A stretch of 44,383 nucleotides of DNA, from contig CANQOA010000015.1 in NCBI GenBank assembly GCA_947625355.1, positions 1 to 44,383 on the forward strand, read 5' to 3'. Made by a program: the position numbers and the translations under genes. Shown in pieces: positions 23,560 to 31,523 of the stretch. Every line of letters starts with the position of its first letter. The stretch's first letter is position 1. The stretch is from an uncultured Oscillospiraceae bacterium. Its GTDB lineage: Bacteria; Bacillota; Clostridia; Oscillospirales; Oscillospiraceae. Below the pieces are notes generated by a model. The model saw only the letters and a list, made by a program, of their open reading frames with translations, made no database searches and was not told the DNA's origin.

Positions 23560-25008
23560 ATGCTGAACGACCGGAACGTCAATCTCACGATGCTGTGCGA
23601 TTTTTACGAGCTTACCATGGGCAACGGCTACCTTGCCGCCGGGATGGAGGACAAGATCACCTATTTCGATCTGTTCTTCCGCACGGTGCCGGACGGCGGC
23701 GGCTTTGCCATCGCCGCGGGCCTGGAGCAGATCATCGATTATGTGCAGAGCCTGCGTTTTGAGCCGGAGGATATCGCCTACCTCCGGGGCCGGGGGCTGT
23801 TCACCGAAGATTTTTTGAAATATCTGGAAAACTTTAAGTTCACCGGCGACATCTGGGCGGTGCCGGAGGGCACGCCGGTGTTCCCCCGGGAGCCGCTGGT
23901 GGTGGTCCGGGCGCCGGCCATCCAGGCCCAGCTGCTGGAGACTTATATGCTGTGCATGGTGAACCATGAGAGCCTGATCGCCACCAAGGCCAGCCGGATC
24001 GTCCGGGCGGCCAAGGGCCGGACGGTGCTGGAATTCGGCTCCCGCCGCGCCCAGGGCGGCGACGCGGCGGTGGTGGGCGCCCGGGCGGCCTATATCGGCG
24101 GCTGCGCCGGGACGGCCTGCGCCCTCAGCGACCAGATGTACGGCGTCCCCGCCGGGGGCACCATGGCCCACGCCTGGGTGCAGATGTTCGACACGGAGCT
24201 GGACGCCTTCCGGGCCTATTGCAGGACCTATCCCACCGCGGCTACCCTGCTGGTGGACACTTATAACACCCTGCAGAGCGGCGTGCCCAACGCCATCCGG
24301 GCCTTCGACGAGGTGCTCAAGCCCCTGGGCATCAAAAAATGCGGCATCCGCCTGGACTCCGGGGACCTGGCGTATCTTTCCCGGAAGGCCCGCCAGATGC
24401 TGGACGAGGCCGGCTGGACCGAGTGCACCATCACCTGCTCCAACGCCCTGGACGAGTACCTGATCCGGGATCTGCTGGGCCAGGGGGCCTGCATCGACTG
24501 CTTTGGCGTGGGCGAGCGGCTCATCACCGCCCGCAGCGAGCCGGTGTTCGGCGGGGTCTATAAGCTGGTGGCCGTGGAGGACCCCTCCGGCGCCATCACG
24601 CCCAAGATCAAGATCAGCGAAAACGTGGGCAAGATCACCATCCCCCATTTCAAGAAGCTCTGGCGGTTCTATGCCCGGGATACGGGCAAGGCCCTGGCGG
24701 ACTATCTCACCCTCTGGGACGAGACGGTGGACGACAGCGGCACGCTGGAGATCTTCGACCCGGAGGCCACCTGGAAGCGGAAAACGGTCTACGATTTTGA
24801 AGCCAGGGAGCTGCTGCGGCCCATCTTCCTGGGGGGACGGCTGGTGTATGAAAAGCCCGCGCTGGGCCAGATCAGGGACTATTGTGCCGCCCAGACGGAC
24901 ACGCTTTGGGACGAGGTGCGCCGGTTTGAGAATCCCCACCGGTACTATGTGGACCTGTCCCAAAAGCTGTGGGACATCAAAAATGACCTGCTCCACGCCA
25001 AAAAGTGA
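23560..25008 (+). CDS. pncB: Nicotinate phosphoribosyltransferase
   Basis: Converts nicotinate and PRPP to nicotinate mononucleotide in NAD salvage. It has 482 residues, of the Firmicute type. Diagnostic segments: LCDFYELTMGNGYLAAGM at the N-terminus, EFGSRRAQGGDAA (the active-site loop near residues 148-160), GIRLDSGDLAYLSRKAR and FGVGERLITARSEP (phosphoribosyl-binding region), and KRKTVYDFEARELL near the end. GAGGAGG precedes the ATG. No terminator with a T-run follows; instead a 14-bp inverted repeat at 25037-25073 merges with the next promoter. Confidence 0.96.
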   Translation: MLNDRNVNLTMLCDFYELTMGNGYLAAGMEDKITYFDLFFRTVPDGGGFAIAAGLEQIIDYVQSLRFEPEDIAYLRGRGLFTEDFLKYLENFKFTGDIWAVPEGTPVFPREPLVVVRAPAIQAQLLETYMLCMVNHESLIATKASRIVRAAKGRTVLEFGSRRAQGGDAAVVGARAAYIGGCAGTACALSDQMYGVPAGGTMAHAWVQMFDTELDAFRAYCRTYPTAATLLVDTYNTLQSGVPNAIRAFDEVLKPLGIKKCGIRLDSGDLAYLSRKARQMLDEAGWTECTITCSNALDEYLIRDLLGQGACIDCFGVGERLITARSEPVFGGVYKLVAVEDPSGAITPKIKISENVGKITIPHFKKLWRFYARDTGKALADYLTLWDETVDDSGTLEIFDPEATWKRKTVYDFEARELLRPIFLGGRLVYEKPALGQIRDYCAAQTDTLWDEVRRFENPHRYYVDLSQKLWDIKNDLLHAKK

Positions 25009-25036
25009 CGGGACAGGCCAGGATTTGGAAGCTGCG

Positions 25037-25079
25037 GCGGGTTTTCCTCCTTGCACTATGGAGGAAAACCCGCTATAAT
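25037..25079 (+). promoter_or_regulatory. Promoter A with flanking inverted repeat
   Basis: TTGCAC (25051-25056), 17 bases, TATAAT (25074-25079). A perfect 14-bp inverted repeat, GCGGGTTTTCCTCC / GGAGGAAAACCCGC with a 9-base gap, spans 25037-25073, so the -35 sits in its loop. It could be an operator or the 3' hairpin of pncB. In copy B (27603-27639) the left arm has two changes while the right arm is intact. Confidence 0.75.
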
Positions 25080-25086
25080 ATGGCCA

Positions 25087-25272
25087 CGAGATAACAAGGG
25101 CAGGCCGTGAGGTGTTTAGCCCGCCCCACGGCCCTATGCAGGAGCTCAACCTCCCACACAGCAGAATTCTGCGCCACGCCTCATTATACCCGCTCCCTGT
25201 TGTTTTTACAAGAGCCGGTGAGGTTTGTGTCGTCGCCTTTTTGCGGTGCAGGGGTGACTCTGCACCGCTTTT
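25087..25272 (+). ncRNA. Structured leader or small RNA, copy A, with intrinsic terminator
   Basis: From the predicted start (~25087) to a terminator, about 186 nt without a convincing ORF. Elements: a possible closing pairing of AACAAGG (25093-25099) with CCCTGTT (25195-25201); a 12-bp hairpin GGCCGTGAGGTG / CGCCCCACGGCC (25103-25133); a GCAGAATTCTGC self-complementary hairpin; and a terminator GCGGTGCAG / CTGCACCGC + TTTT at 25243-25272. The next gene starts 96 bases later after a GC hairpin (25297-25315). It could be a cis-acting attenuator of the secreted protein or an independent small RNA (length is 6S-like). No known Rfam family was recognised. Confidence 0.5.
25243..25272 (+). terminator. 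Intrinsic terminator inside the leader, copy A
   Basis: A 9-bp stem GCGGTGCAG / CTGCACCGC with an 8-base loop followed by TTTT. It stands between the promoter and the secreted-protein gene, the arrangement expected of transcription attenuation. Confidence 0.75.
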
Positions 25273-25367
25273 GTCATCTCGGCAGGAAAGCCCGCCGGGG
25301 GCCGCCCTGGCCCCCGGGCCGTACTGTTGAGAGCACCTTTGGCCCAAATTTGAAAGGAGGACCAAAA

Positions 25368-27428
25368 ATGAAAAGATCACTCACGCTTCTCCTCGCCCTG
25401 GCAATGCTGCTGGCGCTTGCCGTGCCGGCGTTTGCCGCGGAGGAGGACCCCGCGTCGCCGACGGTGCGTACGGTGAACCTGACAGACGCCAATGGCGCCA
25501 ACTATGGCACGGTCACCACGACGGACGGCGTCCTGGGCGAGCTGCCCACGCCCACTCGTACCGGCTGGACCTTTGTGGGCTGGTATGACGGCCAGGTGAC
25601 CGAAAAGCTCGACGATGACGCCTTCACCGCCGGCGGCAGTCCCAACGGCCACTACTGGCAGTGGACGGTCGAAGCCGGAGGTGAGCAGGTCCACGCCGGC
25701 GCTGACATCGGCGAGACGACCACCCTGTACGCGAAGTTCGAGCCCACCGTCGTCACCTATGCCATGTGGCCCAACGGCTGGATGGGCCAATCCACCGGCG
25801 CGCTCTATTGCACCCGTCAGTACGGCGTGCCCTTTGACCCCTATGTCATCGGCTGGAACGCCTCGTGGAATAGTGGCAGTGATACCATCAGCGAGCTGAA
25901 ATGGGAAGGCTATACCTTTGACGGCTGGTATACCACCCAGTATTCCAAGGACGGCGGATACCGGGTCACGGGGAGCGATACCGTCGGCGGCTTTGCGAAC
26001 GTCTACATGCGTTGGCACAAGGATGACAACACCGTCAGCTCCGATGACAACGGATACCTGGGCTATCAGGAGCCGACAGCTCTCTATGTCGGCCCCAAGG
26101 AAGTGCGCCTGGTGTGCAGCAAGCCCCAGACCGTCACGGCCGCCGTCATGCCCTCCGGCCAGACCGGCATCAAGACACTGGAATGGACGGCCAGTCCTGA
26201 CAACATCGTGAAGATCGAGGGCGACGGCCTGCAGGTGCAGCTGGTCCCTGTGGGGGACGGCTATGCCACCGTTACTGCCAGGATACCTGGCACTGACTTT
26301 TCTGACACCATCTCCGTGCGTGTAGGCGGTCACAACTGGAACAATGGCCGGGTGATCACGTGGGGCGGCTGCACCGAGCAATGTGTGGCGCGCTTCACTT
26401 GCAAGACCTGTGGCGCAACTGAAGATGTGACGTATCCGCCCGACGGCCACCGGTTCACCTACAACAAGACCGAACCCACCTGCACCACCGAGGGTCATGA
26501 GCGCTGGATATGCGTTGTCTGCGGCTATACGACGGACAATAAGACCCCGCCGAAAGGCCACGAGATGAAGGTCGAGAGCATCGAAGAGGGCTGCGGCGGC
26601 ACGGTGGAGACGGATGTTTGCACCGTCTGCGGCTATAAGATGACTCTCACCAACACCAGCGGCGCTGCCCACGCCTGGGACACCGCCTATACGGTGGATA
26701 GGGCGGCTACCTGCGCGGCGGAGGGCAGCAAGTCCATCCACTGCGCTCATTGCAGCGCTACCAAGGACAGCCAGCCCATCCCCGCCACCGGTGCACACAG
26801 CTATGGGGATTGGCAGGAAACCAAGGCTCCCACCACGGAGGAATTCGGCCTGAAGGAGCGCACCTGCTCCGTCTGCGGCGCGAAGGAGACCGAGCAGATC
26901 GAGAAGCTGAACGCCCCCGAGCTGTCGCAGGATGTCATCGATCAGCCCACTGAGACGCCTGATCCGGAGCAGACCCCTGAGCCCAGTGTGACTCCCGAGC
27001 CCGAGCAGACTCCCGAGCCCGAGCAGACTCCCGAGCCCGGCGAGACCCCGGCGCCTGAGGTGACGCCCAAGCCCGTGGTCCCCGAGGCCCCCAAGGCCGG
27101 CGAGTATCCCTGGGAGAAGAACGAGGCCGGCCAGTGGTTCGTCTTTGAGGAAGGCGAGCCGGTGAAGGACCAGTGGTACATGAGTAGCGAGAGCGGCTGG
27201 TGGTACCATCTGGATGAGAACGGCGTCATGGAGACCGGTCTCCAGACCATCGACGGCAAGATGTTCTGCCTCGGCGAGAACGGCCGGCTGCTCTGCGGCT
27301 GGCAGGAGCTGGGCACCTGCGTCAACAAGAAAGGCGCGACCGTCATCAACTGGGGCTGGTTCGAGACCGCGCACAAGGGCCACTTCGGCGAGTGCACCTG
27401 GACCACCGAGCTGGGCGACATCAAGTGA
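25368..27428 (+). CDS. Secreted multi-domain surface protein, copy A
   Basis: A 686-residue exported protein of unknown function. Order: signal peptide (1-24, ending VPAFA), two InlB-type beta repeats marked by GWTFVGWYD and GYTFDGWYT (~45-215), a Big_2-like Ig domain (~240-320), four to five Cys knuckle repeats (CKTCG, CVVCG, CTVCG, CAHCS, CSVCG; ~325-530), a Thr-Pro-Glu-Pro linker (~535-570), and a C-terminal module resembling choline/glucan-binding repeats (GWWYHLDENGVMETGLQTID). That module suggests attachment to the cell wall or a glycan. AAAGGAGG precedes the ATG. Last ~130 codons and ends are identical to copy B; the centre is not. Confidence 0.88.
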   Translation: MKRSLTLLLALAMLLALAVPAFAAEEDPASPTVRTVNLTDANGANYGTVTTTDGVLGELPTPTRTGWTFVGWYDGQVTEKLDDDAFTAGGSPNGHYWQWTVEAGGEQVHAGADIGETTTLYAKFEPTVVTYAMWPNGWMGQSTGALYCTRQYGVPFDPYVIGWNASWNSGSDTISELKWEGYTFDGWYTTQYSKDGGYRVTGSDTVGGFANVYMRWHKDDNTVSSDDNGYLGYQEPTALYVGPKEVRLVCSKPQTVTAAVMPSGQTGIKTLEWTASPDNIVKIEGDGLQVQLVPVGDGYATVTARIPGTDFSDTISVRVGGHNWNNGRVITWGGCTEQCVARFTCKTCGATEDVTYPPDGHRFTYNKTEPTCTTEGHERWICVVCGYTTDNKTPPKGHEMKVESIEEGCGGTVETDVCTVCGYKMTLTNTSGAAHAWDTAYTVDRAATCAAEGSKSIHCAHCSATKDSQPIPATGAHSYGDWQETKAPTTEEFGLKERTCSVCGAKETEQIEKLNAPELSQDVIDQPTETPDPEQTPEPSVTPEPEQTPEPEQTPEPGETPAPEVTPKPVVPEAPKAGEYPWEKNEAGQWFVFEEGEPVKDQWYMSSESGWWYHLDENGVMETGLQTIDGKMFCLGENGRLLCGWQELGTCVNKKGATVINWGWFETAHKGHFGECTWTTELGDIK

Positions 27429-27472
27429 GCTGAAAAACAAAAACGCCTCCGCTTCAACGGAGACGTGAATGA

Positions 27473-27505
27473 GGTGACCGGTCTTTGCGACCGGTCACCT
27501 TTTTT
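27473..27505 (+). terminator. Intrinsic terminator after copy A
   Basis: An 11-bp stem GGTGACCGGTC / GACCGGTCACC (loop TTTGC) followed by T6. A smaller hairpin CTCCG-CTTCAA-CGGAG lies just before it. Both are repeated after copy B. Confidence 0.93.
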
Positions 27506-27517
27506 GCCCGCGGCCGT

Positions 27518-27565
27518 TCAGGCCATCCGGCCTACGCGCTGGCCCCGGCGGACCGGTATTTCCAT
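27518..27565 (-). pseudogene. Remnant of the 3' end of psd
   Basis: On the minus strand 15 codons plus stop read MEIPVRRGQRVGRMA, aligning residue for residue with the end of the intact psd gene (METPIRQGQRVGRIA, 30046-30093). It has no upstream coding sequence. It shows that the duplicated unit carried the 3' end of psd along, so the locus grew by tandem duplication between pncB and psd. The rest of 27429-27933 holds the copy A terminator, this remnant, a poly-A joint (27566-27572), promoter B and leader B. Confidence 0.85.
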
Positions 27566-27616
27566 AAAAAAAGACGGGACAAGTCAGAATTTGGAAGCCG
27601 CGGCGCGTTTTCCCCC

Positions 27617-27645
27617 TTGCACTATGGAGGAAAACCCGCTATAAT
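27617..27645 (+). promoter_or_regulatory. Promoter B
   Basis: TTGCAC (27617-27622), 17 bases identical to copy A, TATAAT (27640-27645). The left arm of the surrounding inverted repeat (27603-27616) has two substitutions relative to copy A. Confidence 0.75.
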
Positions 27646-27652
27646 ATGGCCA

Positions 27653-27838
27653 CGAGATAACAAGGGCAGGCCGCGAGGCGTTTAGCCCGCCTCACGGCCC
27701 TATGCAGGAGCTCAACCTCCCACACAGCAGAATTCTGCGCCACGCCTCATGATGCCCGCTCCTTGTTGTTTTTACAAGAGCCGGTGAGGTTTGTGTTGTC
27801 GCCTTTTTGCGGTGCAGGGGTGACTCTGCGCCGCTTTT
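27653..27838 (+). ncRNA. Structured leader or small RNA, copy B, with intrinsic terminator
   Basis: Same layout as copy A with scattered substitutions. The 12-bp hairpin keeps 11 pairs, but the mismatch moves to another position: one A-C mismatch becomes A-T, one T-G becomes C-G, and one T-A becomes C-A. The closing pairing AACAAGG / CCTTGTT is perfect here. The terminator is GCGGTGCAG / CTGCGCCGC with one T-G pair, then TTTT. Persistence of the pairing despite sequence drift gives weak support for a functional RNA. Confidence 0.5.
27809..27838 (+). terminator. Intrinsic terminator inside the leader, copy B
   Basis: Stem GCGGTGCAG / CTGCGCCGC with an 8-base loop and TTTT, 95 bases upstream of the copy B start codon. 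Confidence 0.75.
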
Positions 27839-27933
27839 GTCATCTCGGCAGGAAAGCCCGCCGGGGCCGCCCTGGCCCCCGGGCCGTACTGTTGAGATCA
27901 CCCTTGGCCCAAATTTGAAAGGAGGACCAAAAA

Positions 27934-29955
27934 ATGAAAAGATCACTCACGCTTCTCCTCGCCCTGGCAATGCTGCTGGCGCTTGCCGTGCCGGCGTTTG
28001 CCGCGGAGGAAGACCCCGCGCCGACGGTGCGTACGGTGAACCTGACAGACGCCAATGGCGCCAGCTTCGGCACCGCCACGGTGACCGATGGCGTTTTGGG
28101 CGGCCTGCCCGGTGCCAGCCGCACCGGCTGGACCTTCGAGGGCTGGTATGACGGCCCCGTCACCGAGTATGTCGACAGGTCCGACCCCAAGAGCCCTGAG
28201 TACTGGTGGTGGAACATCTCTTCCAGCGGCAAGCTCGTCTCCGCCGGCGATAAGATCGACGACGGCGTGGGCACCCTGTACGCCATGTTCAAGCCTACGG
28301 TCGTCCATTACAAAATGTACCCCTCCGGCTGGAAAAATAAGTTTGGCGCTCTCAGTGTCTCCCGTGAGTACGGCGTCCCCTTCACGGGGCTCGTCTACAG
28401 CTGGAACGACACCGAATGGCCGGGCTTTGTGTTTGAGGGCTGGTACACCTCCCTCAACGGCGGCGAGCGTGTCGATGACGAAACAGCGGATATCGGCCGC
28501 AATGTCTATGCCCACTGGTATAAGATCGACGATCCCAGCATCAACCAGAGCACGGCCCAGGAGCACGCGGGCAGCGACGTCGATGCGAGCAAATCCCTTA
28601 CGAGCGTATATTTTTGGAACAAGGACAAGTCGGCCAAGTTCCATGTGGGCGAGACCATTTCGGTGACGGCACAGCCCAATCCCTCTACCGCTTGGGTCAA
28701 GAATGTCTCCTGGTCCAGCGGTGACAGCGGCATCGCCACTGTTTCCGGCTCCGGCCTGACCGCGACCGTGAGGGGCGTCAAGGAAGGCACCACCACCATC
28801 ACTGTCACGGCCGACGGCTGCTCCGCCAGCATGACGGTCAAGGTCGGCCATGACTTCAGCGTGAAGATCTACCACTCCAACGGGACCTGCACCGTGCAAG
28901 GCTGGACACAGTGGAAGTGCTCGATGTGTGACGAGAAGTATATTGAATACTTCCCCGCTTCCCACTCCTTCACCCGCGGCACGACCGTGCTGCCCACCTG
29001 CACCAGCGAGGGCTACACCCTCCAGGTCTGCTCCAAGTGCGGCGCCACCGAGAAGGCCGACGTGAAGCCCGCTACCGGACACAAGACCACTACCAAGACC
29101 ATCAGAAGCTGCGGCGGCTCCGTGACGGAGAAGATCTGCACCGTCTGCAACGCTGTCGTGGAGACCATCAGCGATACCTCCGGCGCCGAGCACAGCTGGA
29201 ACGACTACTATACCGTCGACAAGAAGGCCACCTGCGCCGCCGAGGGCAGCAAGTCCATCCACTGCGCCAACTGCGCTGTCACCAAGGACAGCCAGCCCAT
29301 CCCCGCCACCGGCGAGCATTCCTGGGGCGAGTGGAAGACCGTCAAGAAAGCCGACTATCAGACTGAGGGCCTGAAGGAGCGCACCTGCTCTGTCTGCGGC
29401 GCGACCGAGTCCGAGATCCTCCCGCTGGTGCCCAACTATCCCGACCCGAAGCCCAATGATCCCGAGCCCAGTGTGACCCCCGAACCCGAAAAGACTCCTG
29501 AGCCCAGTGTGACCCCCGAGCCCGAAAAGACTCCCGAGCCCAGTGTGACTCCTGAGCCCGAGCCCGGCGAGACCCCGGCGCCTGAGGTGACGCCCAAGCC
29601 CGTGGTCCCCGAGGCCCCCAAGGCCGGCGAGTATCCCTGGGAGAAGAACGAGGCCGGCCAGTGGTTCGTCTTTGAGGAAGGCGAGCCGGTGAAGGACCAG
29701 TGGTACATGAGTAGCGAGAGCGGCTGGTGGTACCATCTGGATGAGAACGGCGTCATGGAGACCGGTCTCCAGACCATCGACGGCAAGATGTTCTGCCTCG
29801 GCGAGAACGGCCGGCTGCTCTGCGGCTGGCAGGAGCTGGGCACCTGCGTCAACAAGAAAGGCGCGACCGTCATCAACTGGGGCTGGTTCGAGACCGCGCA
29901 CAAGGGCCACTTCGGCGAGTGCACCTGGACCACCGAGCTGGGCGACATCAAGTGA
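27934..29955 (+). CDS. Secreted multi-domain surface protein, copy B
   Basis: A 673-residue paralogue of copy A with the same order: identical signal peptide, two beta repeats (GWTFEGWYD, GFVFEGWYT), a Big_2-like domain (VTAQPNPSTAWVKNVSW, EGTTTITVTADG), Cys knuckle repeats (CSMCD, CSKCG, CTVCN, CANCA, CSVCG), a linker of repeated SVTPEPEKTPEP units, and the same C-terminal glycan-binding-like module. The first ~43 codons differ by one base and one missing codon; the region from ~45 to ~540 is clearly diverged; the final ~130 codons are identical at every base. AAAGGAGG precedes the ATG. Function unknown. Confidence 0.88.
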   Translation: MKRSLTLLLALAMLLALAVPAFAAEEDPAPTVRTVNLTDANGASFGTATVTDGVLGGLPGASRTGWTFEGWYDGPVTEYVDRSDPKSPEYWWWNISSSGKLVSAGDKIDDGVGTLYAMFKPTVVHYKMYPSGWKNKFGALSVSREYGVPFTGLVYSWNDTEWPGFVFEGWYTSLNGGERVDDETADIGRNVYAHWYKIDDPSINQSTAQEHAGSDVDASKSLTSVYFWNKDKSAKFHVGETISVTAQPNPSTAWVKNVSWSSGDSGIATVSGSGLTATVRGVKEGTTTITVTADGCSASMTVKVGHDFSVKIYHSNGTCTVQGWTQWKCSMCDEKYIEYFPASHSFTRGTTVLPTCTSEGYTLQVCSKCGATEKADVKPATGHKTTTKTIRSCGGSVTEKICTVCNAVVETISDTSGAEHSWNDYYTVDKKATCAAEGSKSIHCANCAVTKDSQPIPATGEHSWGEWKTVKKADYQTEGLKERTCSVCGATESEILPLVPNYPDPKPNDPEPSVTPEPEKTPEPSVTPEPEKTPEPSVTPEPEPGETPAPEVTPKPVVPEAPKAGEYPWEKNEAGQWFVFEEGEPVKDQWYMSSESGWWYHLDENGVMETGLQTIDGKMFCLGENGRLLCGWQELGTCVNKKGATVINWGWFETAHKGHFGECTWTTELGDIK

Positions 29956-29999
29956 GCTGAAAAACAAAAACGCCTCCGTTTCAACGGAGACGTGAATGA

Positions 30000-30032
30000 G
30001 GTGACCGGTCTTTGCGACCGGTCACCTTTTTT
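30000..30032 (+). terminator. Intrinsic terminator after copy B
   Basis: Same stem as after copy A (GGTGACCGGTC / GACCGGTCACC, loop TTTGC, then T6). It stands between copy B and the convergent psd gene. Confidence 0.93.
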
Positions 30033-30045
30033 GCGCCGCGGCCGT

Positions 30046-30858
30046 TCAGGCTATCCGGCCTACGCGCTGGCCCTGGCGGATCGGCGTTTCCATGCCCTTG
30101 GCCGATGCCTCGTCAAAGGGCGCGTCCGGGACCGCCGCACCGGCACGGGTGATCAGGATGACGGTGGAGCCGCCGAAGGCGAAGTTGCCCTTCTCCATCC
30201 CCCGGACGGCGGGGCCCTCGCCGGGCCGGTTCTCGATGCGGCCCACCAGCAGCGCCCCTACCTCCATCATGACCACCGGTCCGAACCGGTCCGAATCGAT
30301 GAGGCGGTACTCCCGGGTGTTCTCGTGGTATACCGGCCGCTGGCCCCGCTCCAGGGGCTGGACGGTGTGATAGAGCCCGGGGATGCGCACCGCCGGACCT
30401 ATGGTCCCGTCCACAGGCCAGATGTAGCGGTGGTAATCCTCCGGACACAGCCGGAACAGCCACACCAGCCCGCCGCTGAACCGCTCTGCCAGCGCCTGAT
30501 CCCGCAGCAGCCCCGCCAGGGTGTACATGGTGCCCTTCACGGGAAAGCGGCCGTCCGGCTCGATGGGCCAGACCGTCAGCCGCCCGTCGCAGGGGCTCAC
30601 CAGCGCCGCCGGGTCCGGGTCCACGGGCCGGGCGTCCGGGGCAAGGGTCCGGGTGAAGAAGTCGTTGAAGGAGCGAAAGCGGTCCCGGGGGCACGCCGTC
30701 ATGTCGATGCCGTGGGCCCGGATATAGGGCTTCACGGCCAGGGCGGAGAGGCGGGTATCCAGCGCCCAGCCGCCCAGGCGGGAGAACCAGGGACGGGTCA
30801 GGCCCCGGAGCAGAAAGCGCCCCGGGGCCGTGCCATATAAAAATTCCGCCGCTCTCAT
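30046..30858 (-). CDS. psd: Phosphatidylserine decarboxylase
   Basis: Converts phosphatidylserine to phosphatidylethanolamine at the membrane. It has 270 residues. SFNDFFTRTLAPDARPVDPD, SPCDGRL, PEDYHRYIWPVDG, YHENTREYRLI and MMEVGALLVGRI are family hallmarks. The self-cleavage motif is GGST in FAFGGSTVILI (near residue 240), where the serine becomes the pyruvoyl cofactor. The start at 30858 overlaps the pssA stop as ATGA; the longer frame upstream is a shadow of pssA. It is the last gene of the envelope operon. Confidence 0.96.
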   Translation of the reverse strand: MRAAEFLYGTAPGRFLLRGLTRPWFSRLGGWALDTRLSALAVKPYIRAHGIDMTACPRDRFRSFNDFFTRTLAPDARPVDPDPAALVSPCDGRLTVWPIEPDGRFPVKGTMYTLAGLLRDQALAERFSGGLVWLFRLCPEDYHRYIWPVDGTIGPAVRIPGLYHTVQPLERGQRPVYHENTREYRLIDSDRFGPVVMMEVGALLVGRIENRPGEGPAVRGMEKGNFAFGGSTVILITRAGAAVPDAPFDEASAKGMETPIRQGQRVGRIA

Positions 30859-31523
30859 GGGGTGCGCACCCTGCGCAGCACCCATTTCCAGGGCAGCGGG
30901 CTGCCCCACAGGTGACAGGCCAGGATGTACAGCACCACCGCCGCCACAAAGGCGATGAGCAGCATCAGCTCCTTGTTGGTGGGCTTGCGGAAGGGGAAGC
31001 GCAGCACGAACAGCAGTCCCGTCGCCAGCATGACGACAGGCAGCCCGTACAGCACCAGGGTCGGCCACAGGGTGCCCACCGCGTAAAAGACGGGCAGGAT
31101 CACCGCGATGGAGGTGATGGGCAGGCCCTGATAATACTTCCGGCCGTTGGCGTGGGGAGGGTCGCTCTCGGTGGTGACGTTGAACCAGGCCAGCCTGATC
31201 AGCCCCGCCAGGCAGTACAGCGCCAGCACGGCCATGCCGAACAGGGTGTTCATCCCCAGAAAGTAGCAGATGACCACCGGCAGCGTCCCGAAGCAGACGA
31301 TGTCGCACAGGGAGTCCAGCTGCACGCCGAAGGCCTTTCCCAGGTCGGTGCGGTCCTTTTTCGTGCGGGCCACCTTCCCGTCGAAAGCGTCCAGCAGCCC
31401 GGACAGGGCCAGACACGCCAGCGCCCAGCGCAGATGGCCGGAGCAGGCGCAGAAGATCCCGGACACGGAGGAGATCAGACTCAGGTATGTAAGGATGACG
31501 GTATAGTCATAGATGCCGATCAT
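30855..31523 (-). CDS. pssA: CDP-diacylglycerol-serine O-phosphatidyltransferase
   Basis: Makes phosphatidylserine from CDP-diacylglycerol and serine; its product is the substrate of the next gene, psd. It has 222 residues with about six membrane spans. The CDP-alcohol phosphotransferase signature D-G-x2-A-R-x8-G-x3-D-x3-D is complete, beginning at FDGKVAR and running through LGKAFGVQLDSLCD. ATGA overlaps on both sides link it to the flippase-like gene and psd. Confidence 0.95.
   Translation of the reverse strand: MIGIYDYTVILTYLSLISSVSGIFCACSGHLRWALACLALSGLLDAFDGKVARTKKDRTDLGKAFGVQLDSLCDIVCFGTLPVVICYFLGMNTLFGMAVLALYCLAGLIRLAWFNVTTESDPPHANGRKYYQGLPITSIAVILPVFYAVGTLWPTLVLYGLPVVMLATGLLFVLRFPFRKPTNKELMLLIAFVAAVVLYILACHLWGSPLPWKWVLRRVRTP

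What the first reader, a model, noticed from the sequence alone, without database searches (positions are those of the whole stretch)
25009..30093. Tandem secreted-protein cassettes with identical ends and diverged centres
Two ~2.5 kb units each hold promoter, leader, signal peptide, variable centre and a fixed C-terminal module. The last ~395 coding bases (27033-27428 vs 29560-29955) are identical at every site including synonymous positions, and the 3' UTR differs by one base, while codons ~45-540 are clearly diverged yet keep the same domain order. Simple duplication followed by drift cannot give both. Either gene conversion keeps the ends uniform or the centres are exchanged between alleles, as in surface-antigen variation. 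The fixed end resembles a glycan-binding anchor and the variable part would be displayed.
Basis: partly seen in the sequence, partly recalled or inferred. Interest (0 to 1): 0.78.

Follow-up and report, generated by a model that had tools for sequence, protein, structure and literature searches.

The report
Twin surface genes, shared RNA leader
Two neighbouring genes in a gut bacterium make related secreted proteins whose ends have been kept alike by recombination while their middles differ, and both begin with an elaborately folded RNA that recurs, mostly in front of secreted-protein genes, in many related gut bacteria.

Summary
Units 1 (25009-27564) and 2 (27565-30092) encode 686- and 673-aa secreted proteins with an identical 422-bp stretch at the 3' end (27030-27451 = 29557-29978) and centres about 46% alike. 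A sister species has one gene here; its centre pairs with unit 2 (98/98 support), and grouping units 1 and 2 by centre is rejected (AU p 0.024). The last 130 codons have dS 0 between units but 0.27 to the sister; centres differ by dS 0.5-1.3, flanking genes by 0.11-0.24. Duplication plus drift cannot give this; recombination at the ends after the species split can. One other species shows a similar array; two do not. No silent donor segments were found, so antigenic variation is unsupported.

The leader is not homogenised: it is about 98% alike between species because it is a ~200-nt structured RNA (50 of 58 modelled pairs change on both sides over 62 copies). Of 60 copies with a callable gene, 45 precede a secreted-type gene, against 17% at random points. 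It has no Rfam 15 match and occurs in 42 of 150 family genomes. The published 'SLH motif' may be the same; I could not compare them. This RNA is the more interesting result.

The parts
25051..25079 (+). promoter-like pair of unit 1 (TTGCAC, 17 nt, TATAAT) just before the leader RNA
   Evidence: read from sequence; TTGC and TATAAT stay in place over the 32-copy alignment with few exceptions; a TTG-N20-23-TANNNT pattern stands before 54 of 60 RNA copies. The consensus scan did not list it, its first hexamer matching only 3 of 6
25087..25283 (+). structured leader RNA of unit 1
   Evidence: R2 160.1 bits; covariation
25243..25268 (+). terminator-like hairpin inside the RNA of unit 1, followed by TTTTG
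25368..27428 (+). unit 1 gene: signal peptide, InlB/List_Bact-type repeats, Cys-rich repeats, PEPT spacer, C-terminal binding module (686 aa)
27030..27507 (+). 3' block shared with unit 2 (478 bp, one difference): C-terminal module and 3' hairpins
27510..27564 (.). relic of the 3' end of psd; junction of the tandem duplication
   Evidence: 50 of 55 identical to 30038-30092
27617..27645 (+). promoter-like pair of unit 2
27653..27849 (+). structured leader RNA of unit 2
   Evidence: R2 155 bits
27809..27834 (+). terminator-like hairpin inside the RNA of unit 2
27934..29955 (+). unit 2 gene: same layout with an Ig-like Big_2 domain (673 aa)
29557..30034 (+). 3' block shared with unit 1
30038..30092 (.). 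3' end region of psd (opposite strand), source of the relic

Best explanation
A tandem pair of surface-protein genes at a locus downstream of a NAPRTase gene that changes quickly between species. Each is a cassette: promoter, structured leader RNA, signal peptide, central display region, proline-rich spacer, choline/glucan-binding-type C-terminal module. Shown: the block with the C-terminal module and 3' hairpins, and the stretch around the start codon and signal peptide, were homogenised between the copies after the split from the sister species; the centres are much older; the promoter and RNA were not homogenised. Inferred: homologous recombination between copies (gene conversion) keeps these ends uniform, and the centre of unit 1 is either an old paralogue that escaped conversion or an allele imported by recombination through the conserved ends. 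Also inferred: the leader RNA acts in cis on the gene behind it, probably as a transcription attenuator or riboswitch-like switch around its terminator-like hairpin; its signal is unknown.
For: dS: C-terminus 0 between units, 0.27 to G029; signal region 0.03 against 0.23-0.28; centres 0.52-1.30 between units, unit 2 to G029 0.26-0.53; eleven flanking genes 0.11-0.24. Centre tree: unit 2 + G029 98/98; unit 1 + unit 2 rejected, p-AU 0.024; C-termini of the units identical. One gene in G029 at the same place. Duplication relic. Three tandem genes in G022 with different centres and last 390 bases 89-99% alike. RNA: 50 of 58 pairs change on both sides, 466 such cells against 127.0 in shuffles and 60-85 when slid; closing stem in 32 of 32 copies, 0 of 2000 permutations as good; 45 of 60 copies before a secreted-type ORF against 197 of 1141; terminator-like hairpin in both units.
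Against: In G026 and G014 the last 390 bases are not more alike within the genome (86.8%, 69.3%) than to another species (G030 90.3%, G022 74.2%), so strong homogenisation is seen in 2 of the 4 genomes compared. p-AU 0.024 is not far under 0.05 and two deep forks of the centre tree are open, with one long branch. The relic and the RNA give different hints on the age of the duplication. Collapse of the repeat in assembly is not excluded. The RNA was not found at the same locus in G022, G014 and G026, so these genes work without it there; in G022 a 20-bit match on the opposite strand is unexplained. The alignment counted is fitted to the model. No expression data.
Confidence: 0.75

Rival explanations
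1. Programmed antigenic variation: expressed genes take up new centres from silent cassettes.
For: Conserved ends around diverged centres; raised dN in the centre between unit 2 and G029 (0.10-0.24).
Against: No other copy of the centre in the held genome; each unit has its own promoter-like pair, leader and signal peptide.
Confidence: 0.07
2. Allele import: a diverged allele of the same locus from an unsampled relative recombined into the array, bringing the unit-1 centre; the ends are alike because the crossovers lay in them or were converted later.
For: Unit-1 centre is older than the species split and outside G022 and G014 in the tree, on open forks; the relic (5 of 55 differences within, 8 and 11 to G029) suggests a duplication not older than the split.
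Against: No donor: the best match in 35 genomes of the genus is its own twin at 46%. RNA distances (8/197 within; 3 and 7/197 to G029) suggest an older duplication.
Confidence: 0.4
3. Assembly artefact: the identical 422 bp are one repeat consensus placed twice.
For: Exact identity over 422 bp in a draft genome of 78 contigs.
Against: The leaders at 96% were kept apart; the G022 array is resolved at 89-99%; the end is distinct from G029 by 12%, so only small differences could be hidden.
Confidence: 0.08
4. The leader RNA is a free-standing small RNA made from its own promoter, not a cis regulator.
For: Many copies per genome (up to 16) and a terminator-like hairpin near its 3' end.
Against: 45 of 60 copies stand before a secreted-type gene in the same direction, mostly within 60-150 nt (control 17%); the closing stem lies beyond the terminator-like hairpin.
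Confidence: 0.2

Closest known systems
SLH motif riboswitch candidate (Stav et al. 2019, PMC6429828; section 13 and passages read)
   Same: RNA before surface-protein genes (about 60% SLH-domain genes), taxa include Clostridia
   Different: Sequence and structure could not be compared (figure and supplements not available); that report gives 80 examples. May be the same family
Concerted evolution of paralogous genes by gene conversion
   Same: Ends more alike within the genome than to the sister species
   Different: Restricted to the ends; the centres are far older. Not seen in G014 and G026
Antigenic variation by gene conversion (pilE/pilS, vlsE, msp2 types; recalled)
   Same: Fixed ends, variable middle
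   Different: No silent donors found; both copies have their own promoter-like pair and leader
Choline-binding and glucan-binding repeat surface proteins
   Same: Secreted, C-terminal repeat module alike to choline-binding protein F and glucosyltransferase-S by sequence
   Different: No Pfam choline-binding family rings in units 1 and 2, though it does in G022

Membership tests
Antigenic variation by gene conversion from silent cassettes | silent donor segments of the variable part in the genome | tested here: not met
   only the two units carry the centre in a genome 96.75% complete
Antigenic variation by gene conversion from silent cassettes | exchange of centres within a population | not testable with these tools
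   one genome per species held; no reads
Concerted evolution by gene conversion | copies more alike within the genome than to their orthologue | tested here: met
   ends only: C-terminus dS 0 vs 0.27, signal region 0.03 vs 0.23-0.28; RNA and promoter not
Concerted evolution by gene conversion | same pattern in other arrays of the family | tested here: inconclusive
   G022 yes; G014 and G026 no
Choline/glucan-binding repeat proteins | signal peptide and C-terminal aromatic repeats of this superfamily | tested here: met
   sequence matches to solved choline-binding protein F (E 4.5e-11) and glucosyltransferase-S (1.6e-18); below curated cut-offs in NCBIfam, none in Pfam
Choline/glucan-binding repeat proteins | binding to the cell wall or a glycan | not testable with these tools
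   needs a binding assay
Cis-regulatory structured RNA (riboswitch-like) | conserved structure with compensating changes | tested here: met
Cis-regulatory structured RNA (riboswitch-like) | position before functionally related genes, same strand | tested here: met
   45 of 60 secreted-type vs 197 of 1141; Pfam on 20 of the 60
Cis-regulatory structured RNA (riboswitch-like) | ligand or factor that changes expression | not testable with these tools
   needs probing and reporters
SLH motif RNA | match to its consensus sequence and structure | not testable with these tools
   consensus not held; no family of that sort rang in Rfam 15
c-di-GMP riboswitch | match to the Rfam family | tested here: not met
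   no c-di-GMP family rang on the window or on 15 loci with other copies; the search of RF01051 in the genus is uninformative, its controls being silent
RNA sensing c-di-GMP | GGDEF enzymes in every genome with the RNA | tested here: inconclusive
   GGDEF in 20 of 25 genomes with the RNA and 5 of 10 without; the five exceptions include G002, 97% complete, others 73-89%

The most novel reading that the evidence does not exclude
The leader is an undescribed class of regulatory RNA that governs a set of surface proteins in Oscillospirales and beyond. Together with recombining signal-peptide and anchor ends it makes a plug-in display cassette: any central domain placed between the shared ends inherits regulation and anchoring, so surface proteins diversify by exchange of centres while their control stays fixed.
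Probability: 0.3. Interest if true: 0.78.

Novelty: new variant of a known kind. Interest (0 to 1): 0.6.

Why it matters
Gut Oscillospirales carry large sets of surface proteins whose control is unknown. If the RNA is a shared switch for many of them, one search for its ligand or factor would open the regulation of their cell surface, and model R2 gives a ready way to list the targets. The tandem pair is a clean case, dated against a sister species, of gene ends homogenised while the middles stay diverged.

Tried and rejected
Silent donors: none in the held genome. Leader kept alike by conversion: rejected. Known RNA family: none. c-di-GMP as the signal: weakly disfavoured only. GGDEF was found in 20 of 25 genomes with the RNA and 5 of 10 without, which if anything leans towards an association; but five genomes with the RNA have none, one of them 97% complete, and RNA-free G017 has 20. 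The c-di-GMP-I search was uninformative.

RNAalifold on the first alignment missed the closing stem because the 5' ends were misaligned, so model R1 lacks it. R2 was built from 16 copies chosen for equal 5' stem length. Nine weak matches (E 2.8e-6 to 8.9e-4), all opposite in strand to a true copy, were dropped by a stricter cut. On average 18.1% of non-cognate strands pair as well as the true partner, since many copies are close kin. A first background for secreted genes (50 of 215) was flawed (shadow ORFs, alignment rows counted as loci) and was replaced by random anchor points (197 of 1141). My rule for secreted-type genes is a simple one of my own and also passes membrane proteins (e.g. L009). 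One of 12 flanking-gene comparisons (30046-31416) gave an implausible value and was dropped. The promoter scan did not list the promoter-like pairs.

Structure prediction was not run. Literature: nine searches. I make no claim that the RNA is absent from print. PMC8040213: abstract, outline and section 7 seen, term look-up empty; its supplementary tables were not open to me and could list this RNA. PMC11109978 and PMC8632094: term look-ups only, empty. PMC6429828: section 13 and passages.
Full report
What is there. The window is contig C15 of a draft genome of 2.10 Mb in 78 contigs, 96.75% complete. Two genes lie in tandem between a NAPRTase gene (23560-25008) and, on the other strand, psd (Pfam). 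Each has a promoter-like pair, a leader of about 290 nt, a signal peptide, a centre with List_Bact/InlB-type repeats, an Ig-like stretch (Pfam Big_2 in unit 2) and Cys-rich repeats, a PEPT-type spacer and a C-terminal module. The module is like choline-binding protein F and glucosyltransferase-S repeats by sequence.

The contrast is real. The longest identical stretch is 422 bp, then one mismatch, then 55 identical bases. In 60-column blocks the centres fall to 30-82%; in residues they share 44-46%. The junction is visible: 55 bp of the 3' end of psd are repeated between the units with 5 differences. The array therefore arose by tandem duplication of this locus, or by recombination with the same locus of a relative.

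Dating against the sister. G029 has one gene here between the same neighbours. Eleven of twelve flanking genes compared (87-99% identical in protein) give dS 0.11-0.24; the twelfth comparison failed. The centres of unit 2 and G029 differ by dS 0.26-0.53 and dN 0.10-0.24. The centre of unit 1 differs by dS 0.52-1.30 from unit 2 and 0.67-1.28 from G029. Yet the last 130 codons of the units have dS 0 between them and 0.27 to G029, and the signal region 0.03 against 0.23-0.28. On the centre, unit 2 groups with G029 (98/98); unit 1 falls outside G022 and G014 as well, but on open forks; a unit 1 + unit 2 clade is rejected with p-AU 0.024; on the C-terminus the two are identical. This calls for recombination at the ends after the species split. 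It does not settle whether the unit-1 centre is an old paralogue or an import. The relic (5/55 within; 8 and 11/55 to G029) hints at a duplication slightly younger than the split, the RNA (8/197 within; 3 and 7/197 to G029) at one as old or older. No source of the unit-1 centre was found in the 35 genomes of the genus: its best match is its twin, 46%.

Other species. G022 has three tandem genes at the same place beside the NAPRTase gene. The first has a unit-2-type centre (71.7% DNA identity over 1044 bases), the next two have BspA leucine-rich centres; the last 390 bases are 98.7% alike between the second and third and 89-90.5% between these and the first. Against a general rule: in G026 two opposite-facing genes share 86.8% of the last 390 bases with no alignable centres, but G026 and G030 share 90.3%; in G014 the two neighbours share 69.3%, less than G014 and G022 (74.2%). 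So homogenised ends stand out in 2 of the 4 genomes compared.

The leader is something else. It also precedes two unrelated genes of the same genome (C61, C33). In the genus its DNA matches in 25 of 35 genomes, up to 15 times in one. An alignment of 32 copies shows invariant blocks and compensating changes. A closing stem of about 12-15 pairs, whose strands lie some 190 nt apart, forms in 32 of 32 copies; over 23 distinct strand pairs none of 2000 permutations reached the mean energy of the true partners. Model R2 with this stem (58 pairs) matched each of the 61 sources given: the window (two copies), 30 further loci of the genus (16 of these trained it), 29 of other genera of the order, found with R1, and one viral contig found by a DNA pattern. 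These 62 copies are those for which loci were at hand, not all matches listed. On them 90.1% of cells pair, 50 of 58 pairs change on both sides, with 466 such cells against 127.0 in shuffles and 60-85 when slid (the alignment is fitted to the model). Helix 8 is weak (66.8% paired).

Distribution. R2: 42 of 150 genomes of the family, this one included (35 of 106 genera), up to 16 matches in one. In a phylum draw 4 of 398: this genome and three of two other families, five copies at 35-50 bits; in four of the five the invariant blocks can be recognised, and behind two (L123, L125) a signal-peptide gene follows. R1: 34 of 295 in the order. The wide searches use stricter filters and lose weak copies.

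What it stands before. Of 62 copies 60 had a callable downstream ORF (L062 and L116 had 200 and 173 bases left). By a simple rule of my own 45 of 60 look secreted or membrane-anchored, against 197 of 1141 at random anchor points in the same loci. Copies are not independent. Pfam on 20 of the 60 finds SLH above cut-off in five, BspA LRR in five, and single cases of RCC1, GLUG, RHS, acyltransferase and SUFU; three have no family at E<=0.01. Two other copies (L068, L071) stand before proteins that look to me like AMP-dependent acyl ligases (recalled, not scanned). The last hairpin followed by TTTTG is terminator-like in both units, and the same U-tract is part of the closing stem; this suggests attenuation, an inference. 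At the same locus of G022, G014 and G026 the RNA was not found; in G022 a similar promoter stands before a different short leader, with an unexplained 20-bit match on the opposite strand. The RNA is thus a separable module.

Known or not. Rfam 15 gives no match on the window or on 15 loci, while the same scan found a lysine riboswitch at L009 810-981. The published SLH motif candidate (PMC6429828, section 13) has a similar gene association and overlapping taxa; its consensus could not be compared. A large list of human-microbiome candidates (PMC8040213) has tables I could not open. c-di-GMP, proposed there for the SLH motif, is only weakly disfavoured: GGDEF occurs in 20 of 25 genomes with the RNA and 5 of 10 without, but G002 (97% complete) and four less complete genomes have the RNA and no GGDEF match.

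Verdict. The finding is real and is best read as homogenisation of the two ends with an old or exchanged centre, not as shown antigenic variation. The unforeseen and more interesting part is the leader: a widespread, strongly supported structured RNA before surface-protein genes, absent from Rfam 15 and possibly the same as a published orphan candidate.

Noticed in passing
G000:C61:4275-4478 (L009, strand -) and G000:C33:11979-12182 (L010, strand +): Two more copies of the leader RNA in the same genome, before a small membrane protein and a lipoprotein.
   Followed up: yes
25151-25159 with 25245-25253: The invariant CUCCCACAC block could also pair with the 5' side of the terminator-like hairpin, a possible alternative fold; seen by eye only.
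   Followed up: no
L068, L070, L071: A few RNA copies stand before acyl-ligase-like or acyltransferase genes, not surface proteins, hinting at a wider cell-envelope theme.
   Followed up: partly
L117:5317-5539: One RNA copy lies on a contig of the viral collection (IMG/VR), before a signal-peptide ORF; whether it is in phage or host flank was not checked.
   Followed up: no
L009:810-981: Lysine riboswitch (Rfam RF00168, 87.9 bits) before an amino-acid ABC transporter-like gene.
   Followed up: no
L045:13176-13385: Weak (20-bit) match of the RNA model on the strand opposite to the gene, exactly in the leader of the G022 orthologue that lacks the RNA.
   Followed up: partly
26944-27075 and 29460-29561: 18/36-base tandem repeats coding the proline-rich spacer differ between the units and bound the identical block.
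   Followed up: no
L119, L120, L123, L125: Distant RNA copies in other families have longer, AT-richer variants with the same invariant blocks; a model of their own would test how far the family reaches.
   Followed up: partly
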